Assembly (NCBI RefSeq): GCF_000208925.1
Contig: NW_001915148.1
Coordinates: 1-18,833, forward strand
Direction of reading: 5' to 3'
DNA from: Entamoeba histolytica HM-1:IMSS
Lineage: Eukaryota; Evosea; Mastigamoebida; Endamoebidae
DNA length: 18,833 bases
Under the pieces are notes generated by a model. It was not told where the DNA came from. It searched no databases and saw nothing but the letters and a program-made list of their open reading frames with translations. Shown here one piece after another: positions 1 through 18,833 of this stretch. Positions within the stretch are counted from its first letter, which is position 1. The number at the start of each line of letters is the position of its first letter. The position numbers were made by a program, and so were the translations under genes.

Positions 1-747
1 ATTTATTCTGAAATGTTGTGTATATTTATTATATTAAATTAATATGATGAATGAATATCAATATTATTGTTTATTTGATTTTAAAAAATAATAAATGAAT
101 ATGAAATAATGAAATAAAATAATGAAGACAATGAAATGATAATGAAATAGAATAATCTAATATTGAACAAATCAAATAAAGAATATATTGAATATATCAT
201 TATTGTTACTTTATTATTTATTATTTCAATTATTAAATATTAATAAATTATTATTCATGAATATTTAATTGATATTTTACAATTTCATTTTCATTTTATT
301 TAATAAATGAAATATAAATAATAAATGAATGAATAATAATTTAATATATGAAATAATAAAAAGAAAGATCAATAATAAATAAATATGATGTATTTAATAC
401 ATAATATAATTTATTATCAAATATAATAATATCAAATGATGAATTATTTTTATTTCAAAATATTTTGCATCAATAAAATATGTTGCTAAATATTTTGCAT
501 CATTAAATTTTGCATCATTAAATTTTGCGCTTTTTTTATTTGTTTCAATAAAATTTGCATCCTTTATTTTTTCATTCTTTTCTTCTTTTAATATCTCTTT
601 TGTTTTATTACACTTTATCTTCTTTCTTTTTATATTCTCTCCTTTCTACTTTTATTCTTTCTTCATCTTCTTCTACTTTTTACTTTCTTTTTATTCTTTT
701 TTATCTTTCTCTTCTTTTTTTTCTATTATTTCTTTTTTTTCGTTGCC
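1..747 (+). repeat. Left arm of long inverted repeat
   Basis: Positions 2 onward are the reverse complement of 18238 downward. The pairing runs to GGCAACG/CGTTGCC at 741-747 and 17506-17512. I compared the arms line by line: from about 113 to about 660 they are identical by eye. Near position 97-113 the left arm has a 14-bp insertion relative to the right. The innermost 85 bp, a pyrimidine-rich tract, carries several substitutions and small indels. Position 1 already mismatches, but the window begins there, so the outer limit is unknown. The arm holds a degenerate 15-bp tandem array at 448-567 and a pyrimidine-rich tract at 560-740. The 74-codon frame across 555-779 starts at TTG and is low complexity, so it is not called as a gene. 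Confidence 0.95.
448..567 (-). repeat. Degenerate 15-bp tandem array in left arm
   Basis: TTTTGCATCATTAAA occurs exactly twice in tandem at 493-507 and 508-522. Related units sit in the same 15-bp phase at 448, 463, 478, 523, 538 and 553, giving about eight units. The period is a multiple of three. On the minus strand one frame reads as five-residue units such as A-K-F-N-D and A-K-Y-L-A, which resemble the A(D/N)(L/F)xx pattern of pentapeptide repeats. The frame is short and lacks a clear start, so this is either a repeat with accidental coding periodicity or the eroded end of a gene. Confidence 0.7.
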
Positions 748-1511
748 TTATTTATCTATTTTATTTTTATGTTGAATAAAATATGATAAATAAATATAAA
801 TCATCAGTAATATATCAAAATGATACAATTACATATTGTAAATAAATGAAAATAATAAGAAATGAAATAAATAATGAAATATCATATATTTAAATGAATA
901 ATAAAATAAATGAAAATATAATAAAAATATTATTATTTTTATTTTATCAAATTATCATTGTTTTATTTCATTTCATATTTATTATCATTATAATTTAAAC
1001 TGATTAATATTGTTATTTCTTATTATTAATAAAATAAAGAATATAATTATATTTATATTGATTCTTCATTATTATTCATTTCTATTTCATTATTCTTATG
1101 ATTTATTTTATATTTGAATGAATTAAATAACAAATATTATATGAATTAATACAATAAAAAAGAAGAATATAAAGAAAATACAGAAGAGAGAAATGAAATA
1201 ATATTTAAATTAGATAAGAAAGAAGAGTAAAAAAAGAATAAAATTATTACAAAACAAATATAAAGAATGAAATATCATTTAATAAGAGATGAAATATCAA
1301 TTCAACATATTGAAACAAATAAATAATATGAAATAAATTAAAAATGAATAAACATAAGATAATAATAATTAAATAGATGATGAATGATTTTATTATATTT
1401 CATTCATTTGATATTTCATTCTTTATTTTATTATCATTTAATTTGTTTATGATGTATTTATTATCATTTAAATTATAAAATGAAATTTGTTTTTATTCTT
1501 TAACAATTCAA
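748..1511. other. AT-rich intergenic DNA, no gene seen
   Basis: This stretch is made almost entirely of short A/T words such as AATAAATGA and ATTTCATT on both strands. A short purine-rich patch lies near 1150-1260. No open frame with family character and no RNA-like structure is visible. The right end holds the 3' flank of the BspA-like gene; the motif TAATT, known as an Entamoeba polyadenylation signal, overlaps that gene's stop codon. Confidence 0.6.
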
Positions 1512-3014
1512 TTATCTTATTTCTTCATAAAAATATTCTTCAAAGCAATATTCTGGTATTGATTTATTCTTCTTTAATTCTTCTTCACATCCACATCCAT
1601 AAAAACATCCATTTCTAAATGATGTAATTGATGATGGTATATTAATTGATATTAATGATGTACATTTATAAAAACATCCACCTCCTATTTTACTAACATT
1701 TGTTGGTATATTAATTGATGTTAGTGATGAACATCCATAAAAACAATAATTTCCTATTTCACTGACACTTGTTGGTATATTAATTGTTCTTAATGATGAA
1801 CATTCACAAAAACACCAATATCCTATTTCAGTTACACTTGTTGGTATATCAATTGATTTTAATGATGAACATCTAGAAAAACAACAATATCCTATTTTAC
1901 TAACATTTGTTGGTATATCAATTGTTCTTAATGAATAACATCCATAAAAACAATAATCTCCTATTTTACTAACATTTGTTGGTATATTAATTGATGTTAG
2001 TGATGAACATTCACAAAAACACCAATATCCTATTTTGCTTATACTTATTGGTATATCAATTGATTTTAATGATAAACATTCTTTAAAACAATAATCTCCT
2101 ATTTCAGTGATTGATGATGGAATAATAAATTCATTAATATCTTTCTTTTCAATATGCTTTCCATTTATCATTTTTAAATTCTTTGGTATTTCAATACTAA
2201 TTAACACTGGCTCATTCATAAATATTCTTTCTTCACTTATATATTTCACATCTTCTATATTAATTGATGTTAATGATGAACATTCTTCAAAACATCCATT
2301 TCCTATTTCACTTATACTTGTTGGTATATTGATTGATTTTAATGATGTACAATATTTAAAACACCAATACTCTATTTTACTAACATTTGTTGGTATATTA
2401 ATTGTTTGTAATGATGAACATCCAGAAAAACAACAATATCCTATTTTACTTATACTTATTGGTATATCAATTGTTCTTAATGAATAACATCCACAAAAAC
2501 ATTTATCTCCTATTTCACTGATACTTGTTGGTATATTAATACTTGTTAATGATGTACATTGATAAAAACATTCATTTCCTATTTTACTTACACTTGTTGG
2601 TATATTAATTGATTGAATATCATTACATCTATAAAAACAATTAATTCCAAGTGAATTAACTTCTATTGGTATTGTATTTCCATATTCTTCTCTATCATAT
2701 ATTGTATATTCGATATTTTTATATTCATTCTTTTCTTTTTTCTCTTCTAAATATCTTGAATAACTCACATCATACCATATTACGTATTTAAATATTTTTC
2801 CATCTTCAAATATTTTATCATATCCATTATAAATATGAAATGTTTCAATATTAGGAAATAATTTTCTTGAATATTCATTCAATGGAATTGGATTAAAATG
2901 AAATCGTTCCATATTTCCTCTAAATCTTTTAATTCCAATTTCTAAATTAATAAAATCATTAATATCTTCAAAATACTTCGAGACAATCATTATTTCATTA
3001 TATCCTAATTGCAT
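1512..3014 (-). CDS. BspA-like leucine-rich repeat protein
   Basis: The 500-residue protein has an N-terminal cap of about 115 residues (begins MQLGYNEIMIVSKYF, includes ERFHFNPIPLNEYS) that I recognise from Entamoeba BspA-type LRR proteins. About 13 Treponema/BspA-type repeats of 23 residues follow, pattern SINIPTSVSKIGxxCFxxCSSL. One irregular segment (about residues 255-300, ISEERIFMNEPVLISIEIP) splits the array. Almost every repeat has a CFxxC cysteine pair. It ends in a charged tail (PEYCFEEYFYEEIR). There is no signal peptide or membrane segment and no CAAX end. Bacterial homologues such as BspA bind host matrix proteins; in Entamoeba the family is very large and at least one member was reported at the cell surface, so a role in adhesion is inference. 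The ATG is chosen because the conserved cap begins there. It is transcribed away from the LINE. The near-identical 69-bp units are prone to gain or loss of repeats. Confidence 0.95.
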   Translation of the reverse strand: MQLGYNEIMIVSKYFEDINDFINLEIGIKRFRGNMERFHFNPIPLNEYSRKLFPNIETFHIYNGYDKIFEDGKIFKYVIWYDVSYSRYLEEKKEKNEYKNIEYTIYDREEYGNTIPIEVNSLGINCFYRCNDIQSINIPTSVSKIGNECFYQCTSLTSINIPTSISEIGDKCFCGCYSLRTIDIPISISKIGYCCFSGCSSLQTINIPTNVSKIEYWCFKYCTSLKSINIPTSISEIGNGCFEECSSLTSINIEDVKYISEERIFMNEPVLISIEIPKNLKMINGKHIEKKDINEFIIPSSITEIGDYCFKECLSLKSIDIPISISKIGYWCFCECSSLTSINIPTNVSKIGDYCFYGCYSLRTIDIPTNVSKIGYCCFSRCSSLKSIDIPTSVTEIGYWCFCECSSLRTINIPTSVSEIGNYCFYGCSSLTSINIPTNVSKIGGGCFYKCTSLISINIPSSITSFRNGCFYGCGCEEELKKNKSIPEYCFEEYFYEEIR

Positions 3015-3363
3015 TCTTTCTTATTATTTTATTATTTATTAGTTCTTCTTTTATTTTTAGTTTGAACTTAATTTATTTTTAAGATAACCGTCATTCATTT
3101 TTTCTTTTTATTCTTTTAATATAAATTATTAATAACAAATAATTTCTATTTCAATAAATTATTATTTATTATTTATTTGATGAATATGAATAAATAAAAT
3201 ATCATAGAAATGAAATATTACAAATGATAAATATTCAATTAATAAATATATTAATAAATTGATAATATGAATAATAAAGAAATGAATAAATCAATGAATG
3301 TAATGTATTTATTTCTATCTTTCTTTATTTCTATCACTTCAATTTTAGAAAAAGACAAAAAAG
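3015..3363. other. AT-rich spacer between BspA gene and LINE
   Basis: This holds the upstream region of the minus-strand BspA-like gene and the 5' flank or untranslated leader of the plus-strand LINE. No TATA-like GTATTTAAA element is clear near the BspA start. A GAACT string, as in the Entamoeba GAAC element, is on the minus strand at about 3040-3044, but its position and context are not convincing. I could not find a target-site duplication pairing this region with the sequence after 7913. Confidence 0.5.
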
Positions 3364-4531
3364 ATGCATTACAGAAGACACCACAAAAAATATAGAAAAA
3401 CAAATAACCAAAGAAGAAGAAATTCACATCAACCAAGAAATATAAATGATAGAAGAATGAGTGAAAATAGGTATTATCTGTATTGACAGAGATACATGAA
3501 TAATCACACTAACCATTACAATAATAATTATTACCATAAATATCACAATATAGATGATACAAATTATTTCACTCATCACTTCATTCATAATCATCGTCAT
3601 AAACACTTTAATAAAAATTTCAATAGAAATAAACAATACTATCATGATAGAAACAAATACCATAATAACACACAAAGAAGATATATACAATATCAAAATA
3701 AGAAACAAAACAGAAAATAAAGAAAAGAAATGATTGAAATACAAAACCAAGAATATTGGAAAAGACTCATTGAAGAAGAAATTAAAATACTTACACCACA
3801 AGAAGTAGAAGAAATTAAAAATACCAAGATTAAAGCATATACATCATCAACAATATAGAGGAGATGGTATTTTTCTTGCACGAGAAAAAACAATCAGAAT
3901 AGAAGAAGAAACTATTAGTATGATGATTGAAGAAGACAATAATCAGTACAACCCAATTGAGATTAAAGACAATAGAATATACAATAACTATTTAATGAGT
4001 ATTGAAAGTGAAGAAGACGATGATAAAGAGTTTAATAAAAAGAAAAAGAAGAGACTGGTAGAAAAGGAAGAAAACAAAGAATTTAATAAAAAGAGTAGAA
4101 GAAATAGAAAAGAAAGTGGAGGAGGATATGAAAGAGAAAGAAGAAATGAAAAAGGAAATACAAATAAAAGACCAAACCATAAAAAAACTAACTAAGGATA
4201 TTATGGCATTAAAGAAGAAGCATGAGAATGAGATAAACAAAAAACCACGAGTGTGATAAAAATATTCAAATTCAATGCTGAATCTGAAAGGAAAAGGTCT
4301 GAAGTAAATAATTTAACACAACAATTATTATTCATGAAAGATAAATTATCTAAATTACAAAATGAAAATACACAAGAAGAAAAGAAGAAAGAAGAGATAA
4401 ATTACAATATAACAGACTCATCTGAAACACAGATTGTGAATGACCTCTCCCCTAATGTGGTAGTAGCTGATGAAATATCATCAAGTGAAGATGATCTTCC
4501 AAAAAAGAAAGTTAACGCAGAAATCAATTGA
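3364..4531 (+). pseudogene. LINE ORF1 remnant (basic, coiled-coil)
   Basis: An ATG at 3364 opens a frame starting MHYRRHHKKYRKTNNQRRR. The same frame continues, past an in-frame TGA at 3484, into an Asn/His/Tyr/Arg-rich stretch (MNNHTNHYNNNYYHKYHN) and past a TAA at 3718 into IEIQNQEYWKRLIEEEIK. A TAG at 3856 is avoided by shifting to another frame (QQYRGDGIFLAREKTIRIEE). A second shift near 4095 gives the heptad-like VEEIEKKVEEDMKEKEEMKK, and a third near 4250 leads to RSEVNNLTQQLLFMKDKL and the C-terminal SSSEDDLPKKKVNAEIN, ending in TGA at 4529. The pieces join into about 388 codons. A strongly basic N-terminus plus a coiled coil suits an RNA-binding, oligomerising ORF1 protein, by analogy with other LINEs. 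Function is inferred. Confidence 0.7.
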
Positions 4532-4535
4532 AGAA

Positions 4536-7500
4536 ATGGATATTCAGCATAAGAGGAACACCACATTTGAATTAGACAATCAAAAAAACGGGGGAAGCAA
4601 ACAGATAGAGAAGAAGAAAATTTAACACTTTATAAATGTTTTGCTTTGAAATTATTTGAAAGAAAATTAAGATGTCAATTAAAAGAAGAAATAATAGAAA
4701 GATTAATACAAGAATTTGAAATTAAAGTAAATGATATTAATGAATATAAAGAAATAATAAAGAAGACATTTAAAATAAAGAATGAAAATAAAAGAGAAAT
4801 AAATAGAATAATGGAGGAAGAAATAATAAAACATCAATGGAAAGATAATGAATTAAAAGAAATAATAACCAAAATGAACAATAAAGAAGAAATAGAAGAA
4901 GAGGATATAATGAAAATATTTAAAGAAGAAGAAATGAAAGAACAAGAAGATGTACAATTTATTAACTATTATTACAATAAGAAGAAAATACATCAAATAA
5001 TTAATATTATTAATAAAAATGAAATAATAATCAATACATTAGATGATTATTATCATTATATTAAATCTGTAGCTTCCACTATTAATATTATTAATAAAAA
5101 TGAACAAGAAAGAAGTGGAAAGAAAAGTATAGAAAGGATATTACAATCAAAAATATGTAGAATAAGAGATTTACTTAATAATAAACAATATATGAAATTA
5201 AAAAGAATATTACATATTAAGAAATATGATATATATCATATTAAAATAAAAACAAATAAACAAATAAACTATTATAAATACCTCCGAAAGATGAAAAGAA
5301 TAGAAATAGAAGCAAGAAAGAATAATTTGAAAAGAATAAGATGGAATTATAAAATGATGAAATATTGAAAAAGGAAATATCTAAATAAATCTAAAGAAGA
5401 TGAATATCCAGATAATATCTCCACTATTAATTTCTGGAAATGAATCTATGAAACTAATACTAATATAGATTTCCTGAATATTAATTTATATGAAATATTA
5501 AATGAAAATAGAATTAATAATAGAATATCAATAATCACTCCCAATGAACTAGTTTGTGCTATTAAATTCGTTGCAAACTGGAATGCACCGGGAGTTGATA
5601 AAATACAAGGATTTTGGATTAAATATTTAGAACAACCAATGAAATATTTATTAAAATTATTTAATGAATGGTTAAACAATCCTAATGAAATACCTCTCAC
5701 TTTATTCAAGGAAGAACAATATTAATATATAAGAAAGGAGATAAATTAGACCCACAGAATTACAGACAAATAACTTGTTTAAATTGTCTGTTAAAAGTAT
5801 ATCCATCATTATTAAAGATGAAAATAGAAAATCAATTGATGTTAAATCAAATTGAAAAACAATTATCATTAAATCAAATTGGATGTAAAAATATACATAT
5901 GCATCAAAAGAATGATTATTATATAACACTATAATCATTCAATTATTATTAAAGACTAAATGGAAGTGGGTAGAAACATATTATGACGTCTCCAAAGCAT
6001 ATGATAGTATTAATCATCAATGGATTAAACAATGCTTAATTTATTTTAATATCCCACTAGTAGTAATTAATAGTATATTGTATATATTAAATAATACATG
6101 TCTTAATTTGTATTACAATCAAGAAAGAGTGGGTATAGTTAATGTAGAAAGAGGAATAATACAAGGTGACAGCCTATCTCCACTTTTATTTGTATTATCT
6201 ATTGATATATTATCTAAACAACTAGATAAACAAATAAGCAAATTAAATATTAAAATGAATGGAGAAGAAAAACAAATCCAGTTAAATCACATATTGTATA
6301 TGGACGATTTAAAGATAATGAATAATAGCCTCGATGAAATGGAAAAAGCCCACAAATTAACTAAAGAAATATTTAATGCAATATGATTAAAAATTAATGT
6401 AGAAAAGAGTTTGATAATGAATAATATTAATAGTCAAATAAATGGTGAATTAGCTGAATTACCAAGAGTAACTAATGATAATCCTTATAAATACCTTGGT
6501 ATTGAAATAGGAGATAAAGTAAACATCAACAAATATTGTACAAGAATATTAAATGATATATCTTCTATTTTATCATCATTAAATACTATGAAGTACAGCA
6601 GCCTCAATACAATAAGAAAGATTAATAGTGATATAATCTCCAAATTAAGATATGGATTTTGTATTGTCCCATGGAAACTAGAAGAGTTGGAGAAGATAGA
6701 TAAACAAATAAGAAATTCATTAATACAACTCCAATTATATAGTAGAAATATCCCAAAAAGTAGATTATATGTTAAAATAAATGAAATGGGATTAGGATTA
6801 ATGTCAGCAAGAGATGAATGTGGTAAAGAATTATTAAGAATATATTTAAAATATAAGTGGAAATCAAACACAGGAATAGGAGAAATGATAGATGCAATAA
6901 AAGAAAATCCAAATGGAATAATTAAAAGAATGAAGAAAGCATTTGGTAAGAAGATTAATTTTAACGAATTAATGAATATAATAGAATTAAATGAAAGAAA
7001 ACACAATGTAAAGAAAGTGTTTGAATGGGTAAATAATGAATTAAATGATAATTAAGTGAATGGAAAGAAATATGGTGAATATATAAGATGTACAAATGGC
7101 ACTTTCAATGATAAGAAATTAACAGTAACCACATGGAGGTCATTAAATATAAAAAGAAATGCATTCCTCCAAATAATAAAGATGCAAGAAGGAGTAAGTA
7201 TGACAGGAAATATTAAATCAAAAATACTCAAAATGATGATTTAAAATATTGTAAACATTGTCCTAACACAATTGCATCTATTAGTCATATCTTGTTAGGA
7301 TGTAATGAAAAAGAATCAAATATTAAAACATGATTATGTTTGTAAACAAATATATAAACAGATATTAATTACACATTTTAATGAATTTGATGTTATTGAT
7401 TTTAATAATCCTCCTAAATGTATTAATAATGATGAAATAGTCATAGCTTACAATAAAGATTTATTTGTTAGTGACAATTCATTTCAATGATAGAAGACCA

Positions 7501-7913
7501 GATATATATTATCAAAATATGAAAGAAAATGATATATTATAGATGTTGTTATATGTCAAGATAATAATTTAGAATTAAATTATATTCATAAAATAAATAA
7601 ATACAAAGAATTACAAGAGAAATTAAGAAACAATAGAGAAATAATATATTTAGAAATAATACCTGTAATATTATCAATAAATTGATTAATACACAAAGAA
7701 TCAGTAAGAAGATTACAATCACTGAAATTACAATTAGACTTTTCCAAAATCCTACGAACAATTATTATAAAAAATATGAAAGACTTAATGTTTTATACAT
7801 TCAATTCTGACAGCACATTAGAAGAAGAATAATCTAATGCGAGCATGTTAGAAATGAACTCTATTACACCAATAGAGCATAATGAAGAAACTGAAATAAA
7901 CACTTCACAATAA
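4536..7913 (+). pseudogene. LINE ORF2 remnant (RT + REL endonuclease)
   Basis: The putative ATG at 4536 lies four bases after the ORF1 stop. A frameshift near a G5 run at about 4588-4592 leads into the long charged N-terminal region (to 5368). Reverse transcriptase motifs follow: NWNAPGVDKIQGFWIKYL (about 5573-5630), YKKGDKLDPQNYRQI (about 5730), motif A YDVSKAYDS with its Asp at 5984, motif B IIQGDSLSPLLF (about 6153) and motif C YMDD (6298-6309). A C-x2-C-x8-H-x4-C knuckle spans 7250-7303. The nuclease shows RPD at 7495-7503, Asp at 7542 and then HKINKYKEL. Lesions seen include TGA at 5366, 5438 and 6384, TAA at 7053, and frameshifts near 4590, 5715, 5930, 7250 and 7540. The last open segment ends EETEINTSQ with TAA at 7911. 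All catalytic motifs are still readable, so decay is moderate, but no full protein can be made. Confidence 0.88.
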
Positions 7914-8236
7914 TCATAAAATCCAATAATGGATATATCTATTAATTTCTATTATCTTATTCATTTGATTCATAATGAATTAATTCAATGAAATAATACA
8001 AATAAATTGTTTATTCATTTTATCTTATTTCTCTTTTATTCTTATTTCTTTTATTATTTATTAAAAACACCATCATTGGGTGTGAATATTTCAAATGAAA
8101 TAAAATAAATCATCATTGAATTATATCCATTTTTATTTCACCATTTCATTCATTGTCAGATGAACAAAATGTTCATATTCTTCATTGATTTGTTTTTATT
8201 CTTTTTTATTTCATTTTCAATTAATTCCAGATTGAA
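7914..8236. other. LINE 3' flank and AT-rich spacer
   Basis: About 320 bp follows the ORF2 stop. It should contain the short LINE 3' untranslated region and the genomic insertion boundary, but neither is visible to me. It also holds the 3' flank of the minus-strand TLDc relic. No gene is seen. Confidence 0.45.
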
Positions 8237-9560: not shown

Positions 9561-9629
9561 TTTCTTTTCTTTACAACAAACAAAAACATAGTCAGCAACA
9601 AATCAATAAAATTTGAGATAAATTTTACA

Positions 9630-9710
9630 ATGAAAAAAAACCTAAAACAAAAAAAGAAAAAGAAAAGAAAAAATAAAGAATGGAGGAAGTTACAACGGAC
9701 AATGCAATGA
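9630..9710 (+). other. Upstream ATG frame overlapping MSH2 start
   Basis: An ATG at 9630 opens a 26-codon frame (MKKNLKQKKKKKRKNKE...) that overlaps the MSH2-like start at 9680 in a different frame and ends with TGA at 9708. The product is almost pure lysine/arginine. It could be a translated upstream frame, part of the leader, or an eroded nuclear-localisation-like N-terminus separated from the main frame by a shift in the A8 run at 9633-9640. The sequence alone does not decide. Confidence 0.3.
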
Positions 9711-11572
9711 TAATCGAAGAAGATGCTATTGAAGGACTTCATTTATTTGGAGATAAAAAAGAAATGACATTATTTAAACATTTAAATAGAACACATACAA
9801 AGATAGGAGAAAAGATGATAAAAGAATGGATTAAACAACCGTTGATAGACAAAGACAAGATAAATAAACGATTAGAATTAGTCGAAGGGTTTTATGACAA
9901 TTCAGGGATTCGACTAAAAATCAAAAATGAAGAATTAGCAATAATACCAGACTTAGAGAAATTAATAAAAGGGATAAATAAAAGTGATTTAGAAAGTATT
10001 GTTAAATTATATGAAGCAGTAAGAATTAGTAAAAATATTAAAGAAGAATTAAAAGAAATGAATAATAAAAGTATAGAAAAAGAAATAATAGAACCATTAG
10101 AAAAAATAACTGAAGAAATGGAAAAATTTGAAGAAATGGTAGTAACACTTATTGATATTGAAGAGACACAAAATCACGTATTTAAAATAAGAGAAGATTT
10201 TGATGAAGGGCTTCAAAAAATAAGAGAAAGTCATAAAAAAGTAGAAGAACTTTTTGAAAAGTGTTTAGAACAAGCAGCAAATGACCTTAATATTAAGACA
10301 GATAAAATTAAAATTGTTGAACATAACAATAATTTAATATTAAGAGTATCTAAAAGTAATGAAAAAGAAGTTAAAAAGAATAAAAAATATACTATTATTC
10401 AAACACTTAAAGGAGAATGTAAATTTACATTTAAAGAAATGCAAACACTTAATGTTAAAAGAGATAAACTTAAATTAAAAGAAGAAGAAATTAATAAAAA
10501 GTTTATAGAAGAAATAAATAAAGTAGTAGAAGGATATAAAGAAAAGTTTCAAGAATTAGAAAATATGATTGGATATATTGATTGTATTCAATCGTTTGCA
10601 ACTGTTTCTATTGATAATAATCAAGGATATAGTAAACCAACAATATATGAAAGTGAAAAAGGAATAATTAAAATTATAAAAGCAAGACATCCATTAATTG
10701 AGAATAATAGTATTAATTCATTTATTGAAAATGATATTGATATTGATAGAAAAGAAACAAGATTTCAAATTATTACAGGACCAAATATGGGAGGAAAATC
10801 AACATATTTAAGAATGATTGGATTATGTGTTATTATGGCACAAATTGGAATGTTTATTCCATGTTCAGAAGCACATATTTCTATTTGTGATAAAATAATG
10901 TGTAGAATAGGAGCAGGAGATAATATTGTTGAAGGAATGAGTACATTTATGTCAGAAATGAAAGATACATCAGAAATTATTAAAAAATCAACAAAAAATT
11001 CATTAGTTTTAATAGATGAATTAGGTAGAGGAACATCAACATATGATGGATTTGGAATTGCTTGGGCAATTTCAGAATATTTGGCTATTGACATTGGATG
11101 TTATTGTGTTTTTGCAACTCATTTTCATGAAATTACAGGATTAGAAAAAAGAGTAACTGGTGTTATAAATAAACATGTTGAAGCTGATATTATTGATAAA
11201 CAACTTGTATTAAAATATAAAATTAATAATGGAAGTACTGATCAAAGTTTAGCAATTTATGTTGCTGAATGGGCTGATTTTCCTCATGAAGTTGTTGAGT
11301 CTGCAAAAAGAAAAGCAAAAGAACTTGATTTAGACCAACCTGATTCTAAAAGGAAAATTGAATTATTCACAAATAAAATCCCTCTTTTAGATGATGAAAT
11401 TCCTCAAATTACTTCTGAAGATATTCTTAATGGAAAGTCAATTATTTCTCAGTTTATTCATGACTATAAATCTACTCCTTCTGATCAACTCATTTCTCTT
11501 CAAAATAAATATCATCAACTCCTTCTTTCAAATCCTTTTTTAAAACAACTTGAACTTATTTCACTAAAATAA
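9680..11572 (+). CDS. MSH2: MSH2-type mismatch repair ATPase lacking domains I and II
   Basis: The 630-residue protein aligns with MSH2 from the start of the lever domain. Its N-terminal AIEGLHLFGDKKEMTLFKHL and WIKQPLIDKDKINKRLELVE correspond to the first lever helices of MSH2. Lever and clamp helices fill about residues 10-330. The ATPase domain has Walker A TGPNMGGKST at residue 366, the GAGDNIVEGMSTFMSEM signature near 412, Walker B LVLIDE with Asp446/Glu447, LGRGTSTYDGFG, and ATHFHE near 479. A C-terminal dimerisation region follows (TDQSLAIYVAEWADFPHEVVES). MSH2 normally pairs with MSH6 or MSH3 in the nucleus to start mismatch repair. Here the MutS I (mismatch contact) and II (connector) domains, about 300 residues, are absent. 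TAA stands two codons before the ATG, and no domain I or II sequence is visible upstream. All ATPase motifs look intact, so either the gene is genuinely short or its 5' part was lost. It is convergent with the downstream kinase gene. Confidence 0.92.
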   Translation: MEEVTTDNAMIIEEDAIEGLHLFGDKKEMTLFKHLNRTHTKIGEKMIKEWIKQPLIDKDKINKRLELVEGFYDNSGIRLKIKNEELAIIPDLEKLIKGINKSDLESIVKLYEAVRISKNIKEELKEMNNKSIEKEIIEPLEKITEEMEKFEEMVVTLIDIEETQNHVFKIREDFDEGLQKIRESHKKVEELFEKCLEQAANDLNIKTDKIKIVEHNNNLILRVSKSNEKEVKKNKKYTIIQTLKGECKFTFKEMQTLNVKRDKLKLKEEEINKKFIEEINKVVEGYKEKFQELENMIGYIDCIQSFATVSIDNNQGYSKPTIYESEKGIIKIIKARHPLIENNSINSFIENDIDIDRKETRFQIITGPNMGGKSTYLRMIGLCVIMAQIGMFIPCSEAHISICDKIMCRIGAGDNIVEGMSTFMSEMKDTSEIIKKSTKNSLVLIDELGRGTSTYDGFGIAWAISEYLAIDIGCYCVFATHFHEITGLEKRVTGVINKHVEADIIDKQLVLKYKINNGSTDQSLAIYVAEWADFPHEVVESAKRKAKELDLDQPDSKRKIELFTNKIPLLDDEIPQITSEDILNGKSIISQFIHDYKSTPSDQLISLQNKYHQLLLSNPFLKQLELISLK

Positions 11573-12227
11573 AATTTATTGTTTCTTTAGTGTATTATTT
11601 TTTGGTTTTATTATATTCTTTTTGATTTCTTTACAACATCTTTTCTTTTTTTGTGTGTGTGTATTTCTTTGTTGCTTCCATAGTATATTTGTTCTATCTT
11701 TTTATTTGATTTACATATTGTTATATCATCGATTTTCTTTATCTATGTTCATTATCATTTCTTATTTCTTCTTTGGTTAGTTCAATCTTTGTTTTTGTTC
11801 ATTTATTCTGATGATCTCGTTATATTTCTTTCTTGTTTTTATTATTCTTTTTTTTTATTTTCTTTTTCTATTTGAATAGTTTTGGTTATTCTTAGAATAT
11901 GTATTGAAAGAATGAGTGTTTAACATCATTGTTTATACAAACGATTGTTTTGGTTGTGAGTTAGTTGTATTGATGATAAACACTTTGATCTTTTATTCTT
12001 TCATTGGAACATTTATTATTAATTTTAATGTTGTGCATTGAAATTGATAATCAATAATTAAAGTATTTGTAATCTAAAACATTATTTATTGATTATTTCC
12101 TTATTATAAGGATATTCATTCCATTTATGTTTGAATAAATATCATTATATTCATCTTTTTATTATTTCTTTTATTTGTTCTAATCTTTTGTTCATTCACT
12201 TCTAATATTTATTGTTTTTGAATACAA
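11573..12227. other. Convergent intergenic region, T-rich
   Basis: This lies between the ends of the MSH2-like gene (+) and the kinase (-), so it carries both 3' flanks. The first half is T/C-rich with a short GT microsatellite at about 11650-11661. The second half is mixed AT-rich. The MSH2 stop is followed by AAATTTATT and T-rich tracts, in line with Entamoeba 3'-end signals (TAATT/TAAATT plus pyrimidines). No coding or RNA gene is seen. Confidence 0.5.
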
Positions 12228-13355
12228 TTAAAGTTGCACAACATTAAGTTGATTATGATTTTCTTTTATTATTATTCTTACAATTTCATCTATTCTTATT
12301 CTTTCTTTTGGTTCTTGTTGCCATGACTTTTCAATAACATCTTTAATATCTTCTTCTACTTCTTGTATTATGACTGGTCGATTACCTGTTGATATAAATT
12401 CTGCTAGTTTCCAAGGAAATTTAAATTCTGATTTAGGAAATGGATCTTGCCATGTGATGATTTGTAACATTGTTATTGAAAATGAATATATATCTGATTG
12501 CATTTTGTAATGTTGATGATTTAATACTTCAGGTGCCATGTATTTTGGTGTTCCTATTCCTTTTGTGAATGTCATATTTGTCATCATCATATTAATATTT
12601 CTTGCACTTCCAAAATCCGTTAATTTACAATTAACTTCAATATTATCATCAAGTGATACAACAAGAAAATTATCTGGTTTAATATCTCGATGTAATATTC
12701 CATTTGAATGAAGATATGAAATTCCTTTTGCTCCATCTATCATAAATTTGATTCTTATTTTCTTTGATATTTCTGTGATGTTTCTTTTATTCATTATATC
12801 TTGTATTGATCCATATTTTGCAAACTCTGTTACCATACATATTTTATTAGGAATAAATACTGCTCCATAAAATTGAATGATATATTCATCTCGAAATTTA
12901 TCTAACATTGCTACTTCTTTCTCAAATTCTTTCTTTTTATCTTCACTTTCTTCAACTTGTTTCATTTTCTTAATTGCTACTTTATTTCCTCTAAATTCTC
13001 CAACATAAACAATTCCAAATGATCCTTCTCCTATTTTCTTTTCTTCTTTTATTTCATCAGGATCAAGTCGTGTTGATATTTCTGTTTCTCCTTCAATAGA
13101 AATACTTTTGATTGTTTCTTCTTGTGCTTTATTAAGTGTTTTACTAATTATCATTATTTTATCTTTGATTTTAGTTGTACATTTGATTGTAATGAATAAT
13201 TCAAATTCACATGCATATCCTCCTTCAATTGTAATGACATTTGGGTTTATTCTAATTGAATATTTCTCATTTTCTTCTTTACTACTTATTTGTATCTTCA
13301 TCTTCTCTTTCTTTGAATTTCCAATACAAATCAATTCTCGTATTTCTTCATTCAC
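12228..13355 (-). CDS. TMK/TKL-type protein kinase, cytoplasmic part only
   Basis: Numbered from the GTG at 13355, the protein has a juxtamembrane module (residues 1-105, including NEEIRELICIGN and EGGYACEFELFI) typical of the cytoplasmic side of Entamoeba transmembrane kinases. A full kinase domain follows: glycine loop IGEGSFGIV (108-116), VAIKK with Lys129, a helix-C Glu near 147, HRDIKPDN with Asp224, DFG at 247-249 and APE at 274-276, then the C-lobe to the stop. All catalytic residues are present, so it should be active if made; substrates are unknown. The frame stays open upstream to 13511 (…KRIYTSFQTKTIFKITQSN… also looks juxtamembrane) but holds no ATG; the first in-frame ATG is residue 19, at 13301. 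No signal peptide, Cys-rich ectodomain or membrane helix is found before a TAA at 13512-13514. It is therefore a 5'-truncated TMK: a pseudogene, or a short cytosolic kinase started at 13301. Confidence 0.85.
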   Translation of the reverse strand: MNEEIRELICIGNSKKEKMKIQISSKEENEKYSIRINPNVITIEGGYACEFELFITIKCTTKIKDKIMIISKTLNKAQEETIKSISIEGETEISTRLDPDEIKEEKKIGEGSFGIVYVGEFRGNKVAIKKMKQVEESEDKKKEFEKEVAMLDKFRDEYIIQFYGAVFIPNKICMVTEFAKYGSIQDIMNKRNITEISKKIRIKFMIDGAKGISYLHSNGILHRDIKPDNFLVVSLDDNIEVNCKLTDFGSARNINMMMTNMTFTKGIGTPKYMAPEVLNHQHYKMQSDIYSFSITMLQIITWQDPFPKSEFKFPWKLAEFISTGNRPVIIQEVEEDIKDVIEKSWQQEPKERIRIDEIVRIIIKENHNQLNVVQL

Positions 13356-13511
13356 TTTAATTTCTTCTCCTTCTTGAAGTTCAATTTCTTTCTTATTTGA
13401 TAATATCCCATCTCCAAGTGATATGAAATTGATATTTGATTGTGTTATTTTGAATATTGTTTTGGTTTGAAATGAAGTGTATATTCTCTTTATTATTGGT
13501 GTTTTTTTTTC

Positions 13512-13764
13512 TTATCCTTTTATTCATTTCTTTTTCAATTATTTTTGTGTTTTATTTTATATTTTAAACTAATCACATATAATGATTGTATTGAAAATCA
13601 TGAATAATTTGAGATGACCTATCAATGTGTTATTATTATGAATATTATTTAACACTAATAACAATTAGTTATAATAGAAATAAAGTAAAAGTGTTAATGA
13701 GATGAAGATGTAGTATTTATAATGAATATTGTTAATAAATTTAGAAATAACAAAATTCATTCAA
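13512..13764. other. AT-rich spacer between two minus-strand genes
   Basis: The region holds the 3' flank of the GPI-tail protein gene and the upstream end of the truncated kinase frame. No membrane-segment coding or Cys-rich ectodomain sequence of a TMK is recognisable on the minus strand. No RNA gene or repeat is seen. Confidence 0.45.
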
Positions 13765-14625
13765 TTAAATTAATAAAAATGTGATGAGAATAGAAAGAAT
13801 AACAAATACACATGATGTACCATCAATACTCTTTTGATTATTTATGTCATTATCTGTGCTATTATCTGTTTCACTTTCATCGTTGTTTGATTGTTTAGTA
13901 TCTGATTCTTTATTTTCATTTTTGTTTGGTTCATGAGTTTTTTCATCTTCTGGGTTGTTGTTTGTTTGTTGATTATTGTTATTCTTTTGTTGAGAATCAT
14001 TATCTTTCTTTTCTTGTTTGTCTTTTGCATCATCTTGTGTTTTTGGTATTTCATTATTTTTATTATCACCATTTTCTTGTGTTTTTTCTGACTTTTCTTT
14101 TTGTTGATTTCCTCCTTGAGTTGATGGTGTTTGTGTTTCTGATTGTTTTTTGTCTTTTTGTTTTTTATTTTCTTCTCCTTGTGATGATGGGTTATGATCT
14201 TTTTGTTGTTGTTTTGTTTTGTCTGAATTTTCTGATTGTGGTGCTTTTGGTGTGCTTGACTTTTGGCTTTCTGTTTGTTGTTTTGTTGTTTCTGCTGATG
14301 TTGTTTCTTCTGTGGTGATGTCTTTTGGTTGTTTTTCTCCTGTTGTTGAATCAACATCTGATCCTTTTGTTTCTTGTGTTTCTTTTGGTACTGCCTGTTC
14401 ACTTGTAGGTACTGCTTCTTTTGTTGATTGTGTTGATGTTGGTTCTTCTGCTCCTTTATCCGTTGTAAGTTTCTCGTCTACACCAGTTTCACCTTTTAAA
14501 TGTATATTATGTAGATTAAACAGTCTTTTGTGTTGTTTTGAATATATTTGTGTATGTATTACTTTTGTATTGTTAATACTCTTTGTTCCACTTGTAATTA
14601 CAATAATCAATAGAAATGTAAGCAT
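13765..14625 (-). CDS. Secreted Ser/Thr/Gln/Asn/Lys-rich protein, probable GPI anchor
   Basis: The protein has 286 residues. Residues 1-12 or so are a hydrophobic signal peptide (MLTFLLIIVITSG). A short N-terminal part (to about residue 50) is followed by some 215 residues of hydrophilic low complexity, first Thr/Ser/Glu-rich (TTEETTSAETTKQQTES), then Gln/Asn/Lys/Asp-rich (SQQKNNNNQQTNNN). The C-terminus is SIDGTSC followed by FVILSILITFLLI and a stop, which fits a GPI-attachment signal with small omega-site residues and a hydrophobic tail. The layout recalls E. histolytica GPI-anchored low-complexity surface antigens such as SREHP, but I see no sequence match, so I give no family name. Likely place: cell surface, probably heavily O-glycosylated in the Thr/Ser part (inference). 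The ATG begins the signal peptide and sits 26 bases after a TATA-like element, which supports the start. The reading frames that overlap it on both strands are composition shadows. Confidence 0.85.
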   Translation of the reverse strand: MLTFLLIIVITSGTKSINNTKVIHTQIYSKQHKRLFNLHNIHLKGETGVDEKLTTDKGAEEPTSTQSTKEAVPTSEQAVPKETQETKGSDVDSTTGEKQPKDITTEETTSAETTKQQTESQKSSTPKAPQSENSDKTKQQQKDHNPSSQGEENKKQKDKKQSETQTPSTQGGNQQKEKSEKTQENGDNKNNEIPKTQDDAKDKQEKKDNDSQQKNNNNQQTNNNPEDEKTHEPNKNENKESDTKQSNNDESETDNSTDNDINNQKSIDGTSCVFVILSILITFLLI

Positions 14626-14651
14626 TGAATGAAATGTATTTAAGTTATTCT

Positions 14652-14662
14652 CTTTAAATATA
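14652..14662 (-). promoter_or_regulatory. TATA-like core element of the GPI-tail gene
   Basis: The minus strand reads TATATTTAAAG, close to the Entamoeba TATA consensus GTATTTAAA(G/C). It lies 26 bases before the ATG at 14625. The bases directly before the ATG are CATTTCATTCA, ending in ATTCA as does the Entamoeba initiator AAAAATTCA. Short leaders of this kind are usual in Entamoeba. No AATGAACT (GAAC) element is evident. Confidence 0.6.
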
Positions 14663-15970
14663 CTCTCTTCTTTTTCTATTATTTTCTTTTATTTTTATTT
14701 TATTTCATAATGACTCAATCATTTCATTCTTCATTTCATCATATTGTTGTATTATTGTATTTTGAACTTCAATGATAAATAGAATGAAATGAAATATTAA
14801 ATTAAAATTCATTTCATTTTTATAATTTATTCAACAAAATTAAATAAACATTAAATTTAATAAATAAATCATAAACAATAATAACAACAATGAATGAAAT
14901 GAATAATAATTTCAATTCATAATTCAAATCATTATTATTTTAAGAATATATTCATCATTATTCATATTATTTTCTTATTTTATTCGATTCATATTTCATT
15001 CTAATATTAACTTATTTCTATTATTTTCGTATTGATTTGATTATTCTTTATTTATGTATTTATTTTATCTTGTTTCTATCACTTGAATTGCCTTGTTATA
15101 TTAAAATATTATTATTTCTTCTTTATTCTCTTAATTTATTTCTTTATTGTTCACATTTCATTTCTTATAGAAAATAAAATAATAAACAATATAATTATGC
15201 CATTATTAATTTGAATAAATTGGAATCAAACATTATTTAAATATAATATCATCATTATGTAATATATTAATTATATTTATTCTTTTATCTTCTTTATGTT
15301 CATCGTTTTCATTCATCAATCTTTTATTTTATCGTTTAATGATGTTGTTAATGTATAAGTTATTCTATTACAGTATAAATCATAAAATATTTTTTATTTG
15401 TTAGATATAAAATATATAACCAAATTAAGTTAATGATTACAAGTTACTGATACTAATATGTTTGAAGTGAAGAAAATTAAAACAATACATAATATTTAGT
15501 GATAACAATTGAATAAATAGTATCAAAAAAAAATAAAATATATTAAAAATGGATAAAATGAAATAATAATATACTATAAACATCATAGTAATAATTTAAC
15601 AATCAATGAACATAATTCACACTAATAAATTAATGAAGTTGAAATAATTTAAGAATAAATAATGAATAATTTTAAAGATTACTAAAGAATAAAAAAGAAA
15701 ATATGATGATGATGAGATTAAATCATAAATATGATAAGTTCAAATCATTAAACATAATATAAAAAGAAGAATAAGAAAGTAAATAAAGAAATAAAAGAAA
15801 TAGAAAGACAATACAAATAAAGAATGATAAAAAGAAGAATTGAAAATATAATAGTGAAATATTTTAAATTAAGAAATAAAGAAAAAGAAATAAAGAAAAA
15901 GAAAAGGGATATATAACAATAAAAAATCCAAAAATAAAAGAGAAGGAAAATAAAATCAAATAAACAAGAA
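14663..15970. other. Long AT-rich intergenic region, no gene seen
   Basis: About 1.3 kb without a credible frame. The left part is a mixture of ATTTCATT/AATGAAAT words. From about 15650 to 15960 the plus strand becomes purine-rich (AAAGAAATAAAAGAA, AAAGAAAAGGG), leading up to the tRNA-like gene. I see no repeat shared with the inverted-repeat arms. Confidence 0.5.
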
Positions 15971-16072
15971 GCGGCTGTAGTTTTACGTGTAAAACACTTA
16001 TTTGTAATTTAATAATTATGAAATACTAAGTTAAATTAATAAGAGTCGTAGGATCGAAACCTGCCAGTCGCC
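15971..16072 (+). tRNA. Divergent intron-containing tRNA-Tyr(GTA)-like gene
   Basis: The fold by hand gives a seven-pair acceptor stem (GCGGCTG with CAGTCGC, one G-U), T8-A9, a four-pair D stem (GTTT/AAAC) with the loop TACGTGTA, a single base 26, a five-pair anticodon stem (CTTAT/ATAAG), T33, anticodon GTA at 16004-16006 and A37. A 30-nt intron (16008-16037) lies exactly after position 37, where eukaryotic tRNA-Tyr introns sit. The variable loop has four bases. The T arm is GTAGG/CCTGC with the loop ATCGAAA, and a T7 run follows. Odd points: the D loop lacks the GG pair and A14, the T loop starts with A rather than T, the first pair is G1-C72 where eukaryotic tRNA-Tyr has C1-G72, and the discriminator base is C. 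It may be functional but divergent, or a recent pseudogene or tRNA-derived repeat. Confidence 0.6.
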
Positions 16073-16076
16073 AACA

Positions 16077-16083
16077 TTTTTTT
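16077..16083 (+). terminator. T7 run, probable Pol III terminator
   Basis: Seven consecutive T start five bases after the end of the tRNA-like gene. RNA polymerase III stops at runs of four or more T. In such AT-rich DNA a T7 is not rare, so the support comes from its position. Confidence 0.5.
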
Positions 16084-16488
16084 AAATTAATGAAAAAAAG
16101 ATATTAATTACAATAAACATAAATAACAAATTTAAACAAAATAGTTTAATGATAGAACTAACTTCTAAATATTAGATTAATTAAATCAAATGTTAATAGG
16201 TTTATCTTCATAATTTCTACATTTTAACTCATTATTTATTAAATTGTTGGTTCTTGGTTCTTGTTGGTTGTTATATTTTATATTTCATTTTATTCTTCTA
16301 TTTCTTATTTATTTCATCATTATATCTTCTTATAAAATTATGTAATTCCTATTTCATTATTTATCATTACATTAATTCTTTTCTTTCTTGAATTTTAATC
16401 CAATTCTTTTTATTTCTATTCTATTTCTATTCTATTTCTATTTATTTCTCTATCTTATTTTAATTCTCTTTCATTGTTCTTTTAATTA
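16084..16488. other. AT-rich spacer with short 11-bp repeat
   Basis: No gene is seen. A small cluster of GTTGGTTCTTGGTTCTTG words occurs at about 16244-16270. TATTTCTATTC is repeated three times in tandem at 16411-16443, the last copy with one change. On the minus strand the part near 16440-16488 may be a further decayed continuation of the BspA relic. Confidence 0.5.
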
Positions 16489-16632
16489 TCTTGAATATTC
16501 ATTTAAATGTTTTGGATTAAAATGAAATCTTTCATCATTTCTATTAATTCTTCTATTTCATATTTCTATTTTAATACTATCATTTATATCATTAACATAT
16601 ATTGATGTCTTCATTATTTCTTTATATCTTAT
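16489..16632 (-). pseudogene. Relic of a BspA-type N-terminal domain
   Basis: The minus strand from about 16629 reads RYKEIMKTSIYVNDINDSI, KIEI, stop, NRRINRN and DERFHFNPKHLNEYSR. This follows the N-terminal cap of the intact BspA-like protein in this window (GYNEIMIVSKYFEDINDFI, LEIGIKRFRGN, MERFHFNPIPLNEYSR) almost position for position. One TGA replaces a glycine codon, and after NEYSR the frame falls apart with TAA and TGA. No LRR units follow. It is a decayed fragment of another member of the same family, in the same orientation as the intact gene. Confidence 0.75.
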
Positions 16633-17505
16633 TTCTTTATTCTTTTCTTTTATATCTCATTGACAGTATTATTAAAACTGTGTTTAATAAAATTATGAAT
16701 TTCTCTTTAATTAAATAATCCTGGTTTTGAAAGGCATTAACATTAGTGATTGTTCTTGAGAATACAACAAATGAGAAGAAACAGAAGAAATATAACTAAT
16801 TTGAATGAATAGTTTACAAAAATCTTCATTTAATGGGATAATATTATTTAGATTTAATTTGTTAATTTATCATTGAAATAATTCACTCTTCATTATTTCA
16901 TTTTCTAGTTCATTTCTTCAATAAGATTTATCAATTTATTTCATTCATATTTCAGTCACTTTTATTAATATTCATGTTCTTTTGTTGATAATTAATAAAT
17001 AAATAAAAAGAGAATAAATCAATAAAATAGAAGATGAATGAGAAATTAAAAGATACAAAAGTGAAAAATATAAAGATACGAAAGAATAAAAAATAAAAGA
17101 AGGAATAAAAACAACCAAAAGTGAAATAAATCCAGAATAGTTCTATGAAGAAGTAGAAGAAATTGAAATATAAAAGATAAATGGTTAATAATAAATATAC
17201 AACCAGATCACAATATAAATGATAGAGATGAATAGAGAATATATACAATGATGAAATTAAATAATAAAGAAATAATAAATAACATACAGAAAAAAAGAAG
17301 AATAATAAATGAATAAACATAAGTAAGAAATCTAATAGATATAAAAGATGATATTAAGATATGCAAATAATAATAAAGTAAAATGATAAGAAGAAATAAA
17401 AAGAATAGAAAGAAGAAATAATTATAGAATAATAAAATCATAAATTACTCATAACACTTTATTTCCATTATTTTAATTAACTGAAGATTATATGTATCTT
17501 ATCAT
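16633..17505. other. AT-rich, partly purine-rich DNA, no gene seen
   Basis: From about 16990 to 17440 the plus strand is A/G-rich. Its frames give fragments rich in Lys, Glu and Asn (for example NNKEIINNIQKKRRIINE) broken by many stops. The minus-strand frames 16952-17320 and 17208-17441 are Phe/Tyr/Leu-rich shadows of this composition. It may be old coding debris, but I recognise no family. It does not pair with the DNA just inside the left inverted-repeat arm. Confidence 0.4.
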
Positions 17506-18239
17506 GGCAACGAAAAAAAGCAAATAATTGAAAAAGAAGAGAATGAATGATATAAAAGAATAAAAAGAAAGTAAGAAGTAGAATATGATGAAGAAAGAAT
17601 AAAAGTAGAAAGGAGAGAATATAAAAAGAAAGAAGATAAAGTGTAATAAAACAAAAGAGATATTAAAAGAAGAAAAGAATGAAAAAATAAAGGATGCAAA
17701 TTTTATTGAAACAAATAAAAAAAGCGCAAAATTTAATGATGCAAAATTTAATGATGCAAAATATTTAGCAACATATTTTATTGATGCAAAATATTTTGAA
17801 ATAAAAATAATTCATCATTTGATATTATTATATTTGATAATAAATTATATTATGTATTAAATACATCATATTTATTTATTATTGATCTTTCTTTTTATTA
17901 TTTCATATATTAAATTATTATTCATTCATTTATTATTTATATTTCATTTATTAAATAAAATGAAAATGAAATTGTAAAATATCAATTAAATATTCATGAA
18001 TAATAATTTATTAATATTTAATAATTGAAATAATAAATAATAAAGTAACAATAATGATATATTCAATATATTCTTTATTTGATTTGTTCAATATTAGATT
18101 ATTCTATTTCATTATCATTTCATTGTCTTCATTATTTTATTTCATTTATTATTTTTTAAAATCAAATAAACAATAATATTGATATTTATTCATCATATTA
18201 ATTTAATATAATAAATATACACAACATTTCAGAATAAAG
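17506..18239 (-). repeat. Right arm of long inverted repeat
   Basis: This is the reverse complement of 1-747. Positions i and 18240-i pair for the outer part; after a 14-bp gap near left position 97-113 the sum becomes 18254, and 18253 at the inner end. The inner end is GGCAACG at 17506-17512. On the plus strand the arm begins with a purine-rich stretch whose frames read Lys/Glu-rich (for example EERIKVERREYKKKEDKV). The 15-bp periodic array at about 17687-17806 follows, then plain AT-rich DNA. The minus-strand frame at 17502-17699 has a TTG start and mirrors the one in the left arm; it is not called as a gene. Confidence 0.95.
17687..17806 (+). repeat. Degenerate 15-bp tandem array in right arm
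   Basis: This mirrors 448-567 of the left arm. On the plus strand one frame reads DANFIETNKK, SAKFNDAKFNDAKYL, ATYFIDAKYFEIK, which falls into five-residue units with Ala or Thr at the first position and mostly Phe or Tyr at the third. The open frame continues upstream as EILKEEKNEKIK and downstream as IIHHLILLY. This matches the pentapeptide-repeat pattern loosely; it is too short and has no start, so a protein is not claimed. Confidence 0.65.
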
Positions 18240-18429
18240 AATGAATAATTAAGAATGGAAATATTGATTATATTCGATAATTTATTCAACATAAAATCAA
18301 TAAAACATATAATTTGATAATACACAAATGAAATAATAAAGAAATATACAATACTCAAGAACTAATAAAAAGAAATAAAAAGAATGAATGAAAATAAAAT
18401 TGATAAATAATAGAAGAAAAAAATAGAAA
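18240..18429. other. AT-rich DNA outside the right arm
   Basis: AT-rich, with no gene seen. The sequence that would correspond to it next to the left arm lies outside the window, so the outer boundary of the inverted repeat cannot be judged. Confidence 0.4.
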
Positions 18430-18660: not shown

Positions 18661-18833
18661 TTATGTTTATTATTTATATGTATAATTTAAACATGATGTT
18701 TATTATATATTCAATCATATGTGTTATGTTATTATAACATATAATAAGTGATAAAATATAAATGAAAATGATATGAATATATAACATAGATAGAATATAA
18801 AACAAAAGAATAATAAGAATAAATGATAAATAA

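What the first reader, a model, noticed from the sequence alone, without database searches (positions are those of the whole stretch)
1..18239. Near-identical inverted repeat of about 740 bp flanking 16.8 kb of mixed genes
1-747 and 17506-18239 are reverse complements. By eye they are identical for about 650 bp apart from one 14-bp indel, while neighbouring elements (LINE, TLDc, BspA relic) are heavily decayed. Such identity in non-coding AT-rich DNA suggests a recent duplication, gene conversion between arms, or a segment able to invert. Length and arm size recall Polinton/Maverick elements (known in Entamoeba), but none of their genes is present. It could also be an assembly fold-back effect.
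Basis: partly seen in the sequence, partly recalled or inferred. Interest (0 to 1): 0.75.

Follow-up and report, generated by a model that had tools for sequence, protein, structure and literature searches.

The report
Two inverted copies of known transposon
The matching ends of this amoeba contig are two oppositely oriented copies of a common 1.9-kb transposable element that looks like the known ERE2 repeat, cut off where the assembly stops, so they are not the ends of a special 18-kb unit, although the two copies share one unusually long identical stretch.

Summary
The inverted repeat is real: 2-747 against 17506-18238. But the window is a whole contig of 18,833 bases, so its outer edges are contig ends; the right copy continues to the last base. 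Both arms are copies of a dispersed 1.91-1.95-kb element, about 85% A+T, with short imperfect terminal inverted repeats; the genome holds 123 of its 3' ends and 131 of its 5' ends at up to 3 mismatches. Length, ends, composition, abundance and host fit Eh_ERE2 (PMC2657916); no ERE2 reference sequence was at hand to align. Contigs often begin inside the element. Each arm recurs elsewhere with its own flank (C75, C20). One intuition survives: the arms share a 560-bp perfect stretch, rank 2 of 666 copy pairs, and same-contig pairs generally share longer perfect runs, fitting gene conversion in cis or an assembly effect. Inversion between inverted SINEs 12 kb apart is published for E. histolytica (PMC3787063). 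Side result: the only target duplications found, in 3 of 21 copies, are each exactly 9 bp, hinting at a Mutator-like origin.

The parts
1..747 (+). ERE2-like element, left copy: 3' 746 bp of the element, cut off by the contig start
   Evidence: 2-747 aligned at 96.8% to the C362 copy; contig is exactly the window
17506..18833 (-). ERE2-like element, right copy: 3' 1.33 kb of the element, cut off by the contig end
   Evidence: 17505-18833 aligned at 95.0% to the C362 copy
726..747 (+). 3' terminal inverted repeat of the left copy
17506..17527 (-). 3' terminal inverted repeat of the right copy
   Evidence: exact match of the 26-base 3'-end pattern at 17506-17531
108..667 (+). tract identical to 17587-18146; candidate gene-conversion tract
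17587..18146 (-). partner of the identical tract 108-667
94..107 (+). 14 bp present in the left copy and in C75, C174 and C362, absent from the right copy; outer bound of the tract
657..3351 (.). left ERE2 junction with its flank and BspA-type LRR gene; recurs on C75 at about 90% (1991-2393, inside the LRR repeats, not covered by these two matches)
1512..3020 (-). BspA-type leucine-rich repeat frame (not part of the element)
   Evidence: PF13306
3306..7948 (+). LINE, broken reading frames (not part of the element)
   Evidence: 30 further places, 90-94%, among 31 scored of 631 candidates; RVT_1
9570..14960 (.). segment with Msh2 and kinase genes, recurs on C131 (98-99% to 13508, then 88%)
14488..17631 (.). 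right flank with the ERE2 junction, recurs on C20 at 94.4%

Best explanation
The arms are two separate copies, in opposite orientation, of a high-copy DNA-transposon-like element, most likely ERE2 of Entamoeba histolytica or its close relative E. nuttalli. The element has short imperfect inverted ends and makes a 9-bp target duplication on insertion (seen in 3 copies). They bound this contig because the assembly often stops inside this repeat; by my reasoning an inverted arrangement is then expected about half the time. Their high similarity is mainly family-wide. In addition a 560-bp tract was probably made identical by gene conversion between copies in cis (inferred, not shown). The genes between are not cargo: the interior is a patchwork of a LINE, other repeats and duplicated segments that recur elsewhere.
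For: Whole contig = window. Sharp element ends with unrelated flanks; ten complete copies of 1,914-1,953 bp, 14-15% G+C. 123 3' ends and 131 5' ends, controls 0. Contig starts inside the element: 23 against 0 and 20 against 7 by orientation, expected 2.3 each (100 listed rows of 123 and of 131). Each junction recurs with its own flank on C75 and C20. Published ERE2: 1,936 bp, 22-bp imperfect TIRs, 3-14-bp TSDs, about 800 copies (PMC2657916 section 14). Host: Msh2 87% to E. dispar, 51% to E. invadens. Target duplications 3 of 21 at 9 bp, 0 of 420 mismatched pairs. Conversion: window pair rank 2 of 666 by perfect run, cis median 242 against trans 109 bp; tract bounded on both sides.
Against: No ERE2 reference sequence was aligned. 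TIR identity in single copies is 11-17 of 22 ungapped, below the published consensus value of 82%, and no frame of 173 aa was found in 15 copies. 18 of 21 copies lack a target duplication. At right contig ends the 5' ends gave 0 of 22 in the expected orientation and 3 in the other. Overall identity of the window pair is ordinary, rank 67 of 435, and cis against trans identity is only P = 0.05. The C114 cis pair ranks 651 of 666.
Confidence: 0.88

Rival explanations
1. The 560-bp identical tract is an assembly effect: reads from one copy were used to build the other copy near the contig end.
For: Both top-ranking same-contig pairs (C105, C106) include copies truncated at a contig end. The earlier E. 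histolytica assembly had 161 artefactual tandem duplications at contig boundaries (PMC2886108 section 14), so misplaced reads are a known problem in this species. Most complete copies lack target duplications (18 of 21), which wrong joins could also cause.
Against: The left arm differs from the right on both sides of the tract (substitution at 53, 14-bp gap, last 80 bp), whereas simple extension with right-copy reads should stay identical to the contig end. The C204 direct pair (rank 4) is internal to its contig.
Confidence: 0.4
2. The two copies recombine with each other and the 16.8-kb segment exists in both orientations in the population.
For: In E. histolytica, inverted EhSINE1 copies 500 bp and 12 kb apart, and 730-bp inverted repeats on a plasmid, recombine and flip the DNA between them (PMC3787063). 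The arms here are at least 746 bp with a 560-bp identical tract.
Against: One assembled sequence cannot show two orientations. With over 100 copies, exchanges with other copies could dominate.
Confidence: 0.25
3. Arms and interior form one discrete unit (a segmental duplication, an extrachromosomal element or a large transposon) with the inverted repeats as its ends, like the D1 segments of E. histolytica.
For: Outline resembles D1: 16.6 kb flanked by AT-rich inverted repeats, nearly filling scaffolds of that size (PMC2886108 section 16). Parts of the interior are duplicated.
Against: [quoted passage not shown] these arms have over 120 ends per side. Interior pieces recur separately on C75, C20 and C131; no scored hit joined all pieces, though those searches scored at most 40 candidates each.
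Confidence: 0.04

Closest known systems
Eh_ERE2 (PMC2657916; also reported in E. nuttalli, PMC6917348)
   Same: Length about 1.9 kb, short imperfect TIRs starting GG, AT-rich, high copy number with many truncated copies, host E. histolytica/E. nuttalli range, target duplications within 3-14 bp
   Different: Sequence identity not checked against a reference. Here every duplication found is exactly 9 bp, and no 173-aa frame was seen in 15 single copies
D1 and D2 segmental duplications of E. histolytica (PMC2886108 section 16)
   Same: A gene-bearing segment of similar size on one scaffold, flanked by AT-rich inverted repeats
   Different: D1 repeats are unique to D1 and 2.3 kb; D2 repeats are ERE1/LINE2 fragments of 1.2 kb; here the repeats are a dispersed 1.9-kb element and the segment as a whole was not seen duplicated
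Inverted EhSINE1 pairs that recombine (PMC3787063)
   Same: Inverted transposon copies kilobases apart on one scaffold
   Different: Inversion was shown there by PCR and sequencing; not tested here, and another element family
Mutator-like elements (MULEs)
   Same: 9-bp target duplication, TIRs (range 8-11 bp in PMC6446971, passages; EMULE-Ei1 9 bp in PMC2725143, passages)
   Different: ERE2-like ends are short (about 22 bp; EMULE-Ei1 has 187 bp), no transposase frame in the copies examined, and no shown partner
Polinton/Maverick
   Same: Only overall size and long inverted arms
   Different: No diagnostic gene in the 8 frames scanned; arms belong to another, dispersed family

Membership tests
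Eh_ERE2 | About 1,936 bp long | tested here: met
   Ten complete copies, 1,914-1,953 bp
Eh_ERE2 | 22-bp imperfect TIRs, 82% identical in the consensus | tested here: inconclusive
   Ends are inverted and imperfect; 11-17 of 22 ungapped in 8 single copies; single-base length differences in the poly-A/T run lower the ungapped count; consensus not built
Eh_ERE2 | Target duplications of 3-14 bp | tested here: met
   3 of 21 copies, each 9 bp; 18 of 21 none
Eh_ERE2 | Hundreds of copies, most incomplete | tested here: met
   123 3' ends and 131 5' ends at up to 3 mismatches; 428 first-look candidates for the arm
Eh_ERE2 | Present in E. histolytica (and E. nuttalli), absent from E. dispar and E. invadens | tested here: inconclusive
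   Msh2 87% to E. dispar, 51% to E. invadens places the host near E. histolytica; species not named by the tools
Eh_ERE2 | Putative 173-aa frame in the consensus | tested here: not met
   Longest ATG frame in each of 15 single copies is 63-111 aa. The published frame belongs to a consensus, so single copies may carry breaks; I therefore call it ERE2-like rather than proven ERE2
Eh_ERE2 | Sequence match to the ERE2 consensus | not testable with these tools
[quoted passage not shown]
Polinton/Maverick | Polymerase B, integrase and capsid-type genes (recalled) | tested here: inconclusive
   None in 8 of 37 listed frames scanned against Pfam; the other 29 were not scanned
Mutator superfamily | 8-11-bp target duplication | tested here: met
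   9 bp in the 3 of 21 copies with any
Mutator superfamily | MULE transposase in the element or a partner with the same ends | tested here: not met
   One MULE-domain place in the genome; its frame lies 8 bp outside an ERE2-like end and no such end was found beyond it in the 10 kb read

The most novel reading that the evidence does not exclude
ERE2-like copies on the same chromosome are homogenised by gene conversion, leaving bounded identical tracts such as 108-667; the same recombination swaps flanks (hence 18 of 21 copies without a target duplication) and can invert the segment between inverted copies. ERE2 itself would be a non-autonomous Mutator-superfamily element with a fixed 9-bp duplication.
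Probability: 0.3. Interest if true: 0.45.

Novelty: already known. Interest (0 to 1): 0.2.

Why it matters
It removes a candidate large mobile unit by showing that its ends are copies of a dispersed transposon cut off by the assembly. It also gives a concrete test of how far recombination between transposon copies shapes Entamoeba genomes: long identical runs between same-contig copies and frequent loss of target duplications can both be measured with long reads.

Tried and rejected
Subtelomeric repeat: the arm seemed to face outward at many contig ends. Rejected: the query was the inward-facing half of the element; the 5' half shows the mirror pattern at contig starts, and internal copies exist (for example C204, C362).

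Polinton/Maverick: no diagnostic gene in the 8 frames scanned.

Arms as ends of a duplicated unit: interior pieces recur separately (at most 40 scored candidates per search).

Empty-site comparison at the left junction: C338 and C112 carry the left flank without the element next to it, but the other flank of the C75 copy does not match them, so no target duplication could be read there.

Coding element: the longest ATG frames in 15 copies are 63-111 aa. 13 of 15 exceed the 95th percentile of 100 first-order random sequences each; C269 (73 against 74) and C327 (63 against 69) do not. The frames lie in different parts of the element (mostly near 210-430 or near 1600-1660). This is a weak signal that neither proves nor excludes a decayed gene.

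MULE partner: the one MULE-domain place (C257) lies beside, not inside, an ERE2-like copy.

Literature: two searches naming ERE2 and three on conversion, long-read assembly and MULEs. Read: PMC2657916 sections 13 and 14 and passages; PMC2886108 sections 14 and 16 and passages; PMC3787063 section 16 and passages; PMC6917348, PMC6446971 and PMC2725143 passages only; all other papers only as listings. I saw no account of cis homogenisation of ERE2 in these, which is not proof that none exists.

Full report
WHAT IS THERE. The inverted repeat is real. The two longest inverted matches in the window are 108-740 with 17514-18146 (633 nt, 97%) and 2-99 with 18141-18238 (98 nt, 99%); the next listed is 52 nt at 71%. 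The full alignment shows one substitution at left 53, a 14-bp stretch (left 94-107) missing from the right arm, a perfect 560-bp run (left 108-667 = right 17587-18146), and a less similar last 80 bp, 70 of 81 aligned positions.

THE OUTER EDGES ARE CONTIG ENDS. The window is contig C106 of a 16.95-Mb, 392-contig assembly, and it is the whole contig: 18,833 bases. The right arm does not stop at 18239: 17505-18833 aligns at 95% to another copy of the same repeat, to the contig's last base. The apparent end at 18239 is only where the left arm runs out, and there is no outer flank in which to look for a target duplication.

THE ARMS ARE A DISPERSED ELEMENT. As a query, the left arm gives 40 scored candidates at 93-100% (itself and the right arm included; 428 first-look candidates). 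Fetched loci show an element with sharp ends, GGGTACGAAAATTAGC...GCTTTTTTTCGTTGCC, and unrelated flanks. Ten complete copies measure 1,914-1,953 bp and are 14-15% G+C. The 3'-end pattern occurs 123 times (58 +, 65 -) and the 5'-end pattern 131 times (67 +, 64 -) at up to 3 mismatches; the reversed control patterns occur 0 times.

NAME. PMC2657916 (section 14 read) describes Eh_ERE2: 1,936 bp, two 22-bp imperfect TIRs (82% identical), a putative 173-aa frame, 3-14-bp target duplications, about 800 copies of which 71 complete; found in E. histolytica, not in E. dispar or E. invadens. It was later reported in E. nuttalli (PMC6917348, passages). I could not align an ERE2 reference. Two features fall short in single copies: the ends match each other at 11-17 of 22 positions ungapped in 8 copies, and the longest ATG frame in 15 copies is 111 aa. 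The published values come from a consensus, so I keep the name as most likely, not proven.

TARGET DUPLICATIONS. Of 21 copies with both flanks read, 3 have a perfect duplication and all three are exactly 9 bp; the other 18 match at 0-5 of 9 positions; 0 of 420 mismatched flank pairs were perfect at 9 bp. A looser scan that allowed small shifts found the same three at 7 bp or more, with a mean of 0.19 and a maximum of 2 in 500 shuffles. Two inferences follow. Nine bp lies in the 8-11-bp range given for Mutator-like elements (PMC6446971, passages), so the element may be a non-autonomous member of that superfamily. And most copies examined no longer have their original partner flank, through recombination between copies or through wrong joins in the assembly. 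The genome has one MULE-domain place, in a 971-aa frame at C257:4264-7179, but the frame begins 8 bp outside an ERE2-like end, and no such end was found beyond it in the 10 kb read, so a partnership is not shown.

WHY COPIES SIT AT BOTH ENDS. Contigs often begin inside this repeat. Of the 100 listed 3' ends (of 123), 23 lie within 2 kb of a contig start in the orientation meaning 'contig begins inside the element' and 0 in the other. Of the 100 listed 5' ends (of 131) it is 20 against 7. About 2.3 per orientation would be expected by chance. At right ends, for contigs of known length only, 3' ends gave 4 of 27 in the expected orientation and 0 in the other, while 5' ends gave 0 of 22 and 3 in the other; that side of the check is weak. 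When both contig ends fall in such a repeat, I expect an inverted pair about half the time.

THE ARMS RECUR SEPARATELY. The left junction with its flank (window 657-1990 and 2394-3351) recurs on C75 at about 90%; the right junction with its flank (14488-17631) recurs on C20 at 94.4%. In the stretches compared (C75:2200-12000 and C20:1-10000) no other match of 200 bp or more at 85% or more to the window was seen. Between the arms the contig is a patchwork: a LINE at about 3306-7948 with 30 further places at 90-94% (31 candidates scored of 631); a repeated stretch at 7960-8622 that includes the TLDc piece, found at 39 further scored places; and an Msh2-kinase block that recurs on C131 from about 9570 to 14960, 98-99% and then 88%. 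No scored hit joined all pieces.

THE IDENTICAL TRACT. Among 37 copies of the arm (666 pairs) the window pair has the second-longest perfect run, 560 bp. The longest, 627 bp, is another inverted same-contig pair, on C105. The eight same-contig pairs (C105, C106, three on C204, C196, C197, C114) rank 1, 2, 4, 8, 25, 26, 35 and 651; the last, C114, goes against the trend. Median run is 242 bp for cis and 109 bp for trans pairs (Mann-Whitney P 0.0002 for run length, 0.05 for identity). Limits: pairs are not independent, the copies fetched were not a random sample, and two further same-contig pairs (C58, C174) were lost to the length filter. In overall identity the window pair is ordinary: rank 67 of 435 in the first set of 30 copies, 0.984 against a median of 0.977. 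Within the tract left and right agree at 559 of 559 counted positions, while left and C75 agree at 537 of 551. On the outer side the left copy keeps G53 and the 14 bp that C75 and C362 also have and the right copy lacks; on the inner side left 701-733 carries changes not seen in the five compared copies. A tract bounded on both sides is what gene conversion leaves. An assembly that mixed reads from the two copies could mimic it. I put conversion slightly ahead.

CAN IT INVERT? Not tested. In E. histolytica, inverted EhSINE1 copies 500 bp and 12 kb apart, and 730-bp inverted repeats on a plasmid, recombine and flip the DNA between them (PMC3787063, section 16 and passages). By analogy, inversion of 748-17505 in some cells is plausible.

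RELATION TO KNOWN SEGMENTS. Segmental duplications flanked by inverted repeats are published for E. histolytica: D1, 16.6 kb with 2.3-kb repeats found nowhere else in the genome, and D2, 12.5 kb with 1.2-kb ERE1/LINE2 repeats (PMC2886108 section 16). The window resembles D1 in outline but fails its defining feature, because its repeats are dispersed.

VERDICT. A correct observation with an ordinary explanation: two truncated copies of what is most likely a known transposon family, at the two ends of a contig. What remains of interest is the excess of long identical runs between same-contig copies and the frequent lack of target duplications. Both point to recombination between copies, or to assembly error, and long reads can decide.

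Noticed in passing
window 9677-11572 (+): The Msh2 frame (631 aa) matches human Msh2 only from residue 305 on and shows MutS domains III, IV and V but not I and II. Listed E. dispar, E. invadens and E. marina Msh2 proteins are also short (594-629 aa, domains III-V), so the whole genus may lack the mismatch-contacting domain; upstream exons were not searched.
   Followed up: partly
C257:4264-7179 (L076): Only MULE-domain place found in this genome: a 971-aa ATG frame starting 8 bp from the end of an ERE2-like copy. Whether it is an active transposase or a host gene is open.
   Followed up: partly
C257:3201-4255, C105:243-1249, C183:24963-26009: Short form of the element, about 1.0-1.06 kb, with an internal deletion of roughly 620 bp and both ends kept (the C183 length only from the positions of its two ends).
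   Followed up: partly
C58 (L034): A direct fold-back of two element pieces: element 1 to about 1732 joined to an inverted 3' piece of about 0.6 kb running to the contig end; real palindrome or assembly artefact.
   Followed up: no
C204 and C362 (L025, L027): The same upstream flank plus element start (759 bp aligned at 99.7%) on both contigs, but different 3' flanks; on C362 it follows a run of N. Flank swap by recombination or a misjoin.
   Followed up: no
window 12274-13468 (-): The kinase gene region belongs to a highly similar family: at least 15 other places at 92% or more over about 0.9 kb or longer (40 candidates scored).
   Followed up: no
window 13765-14688 (-): A 307-aa frame rich in Gln, Lys, Thr and Ser with hydrophobic ends, no Pfam match; looks like a repetitive secreted or membrane-anchored protein (my reading of the letters).
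   Followed up: no
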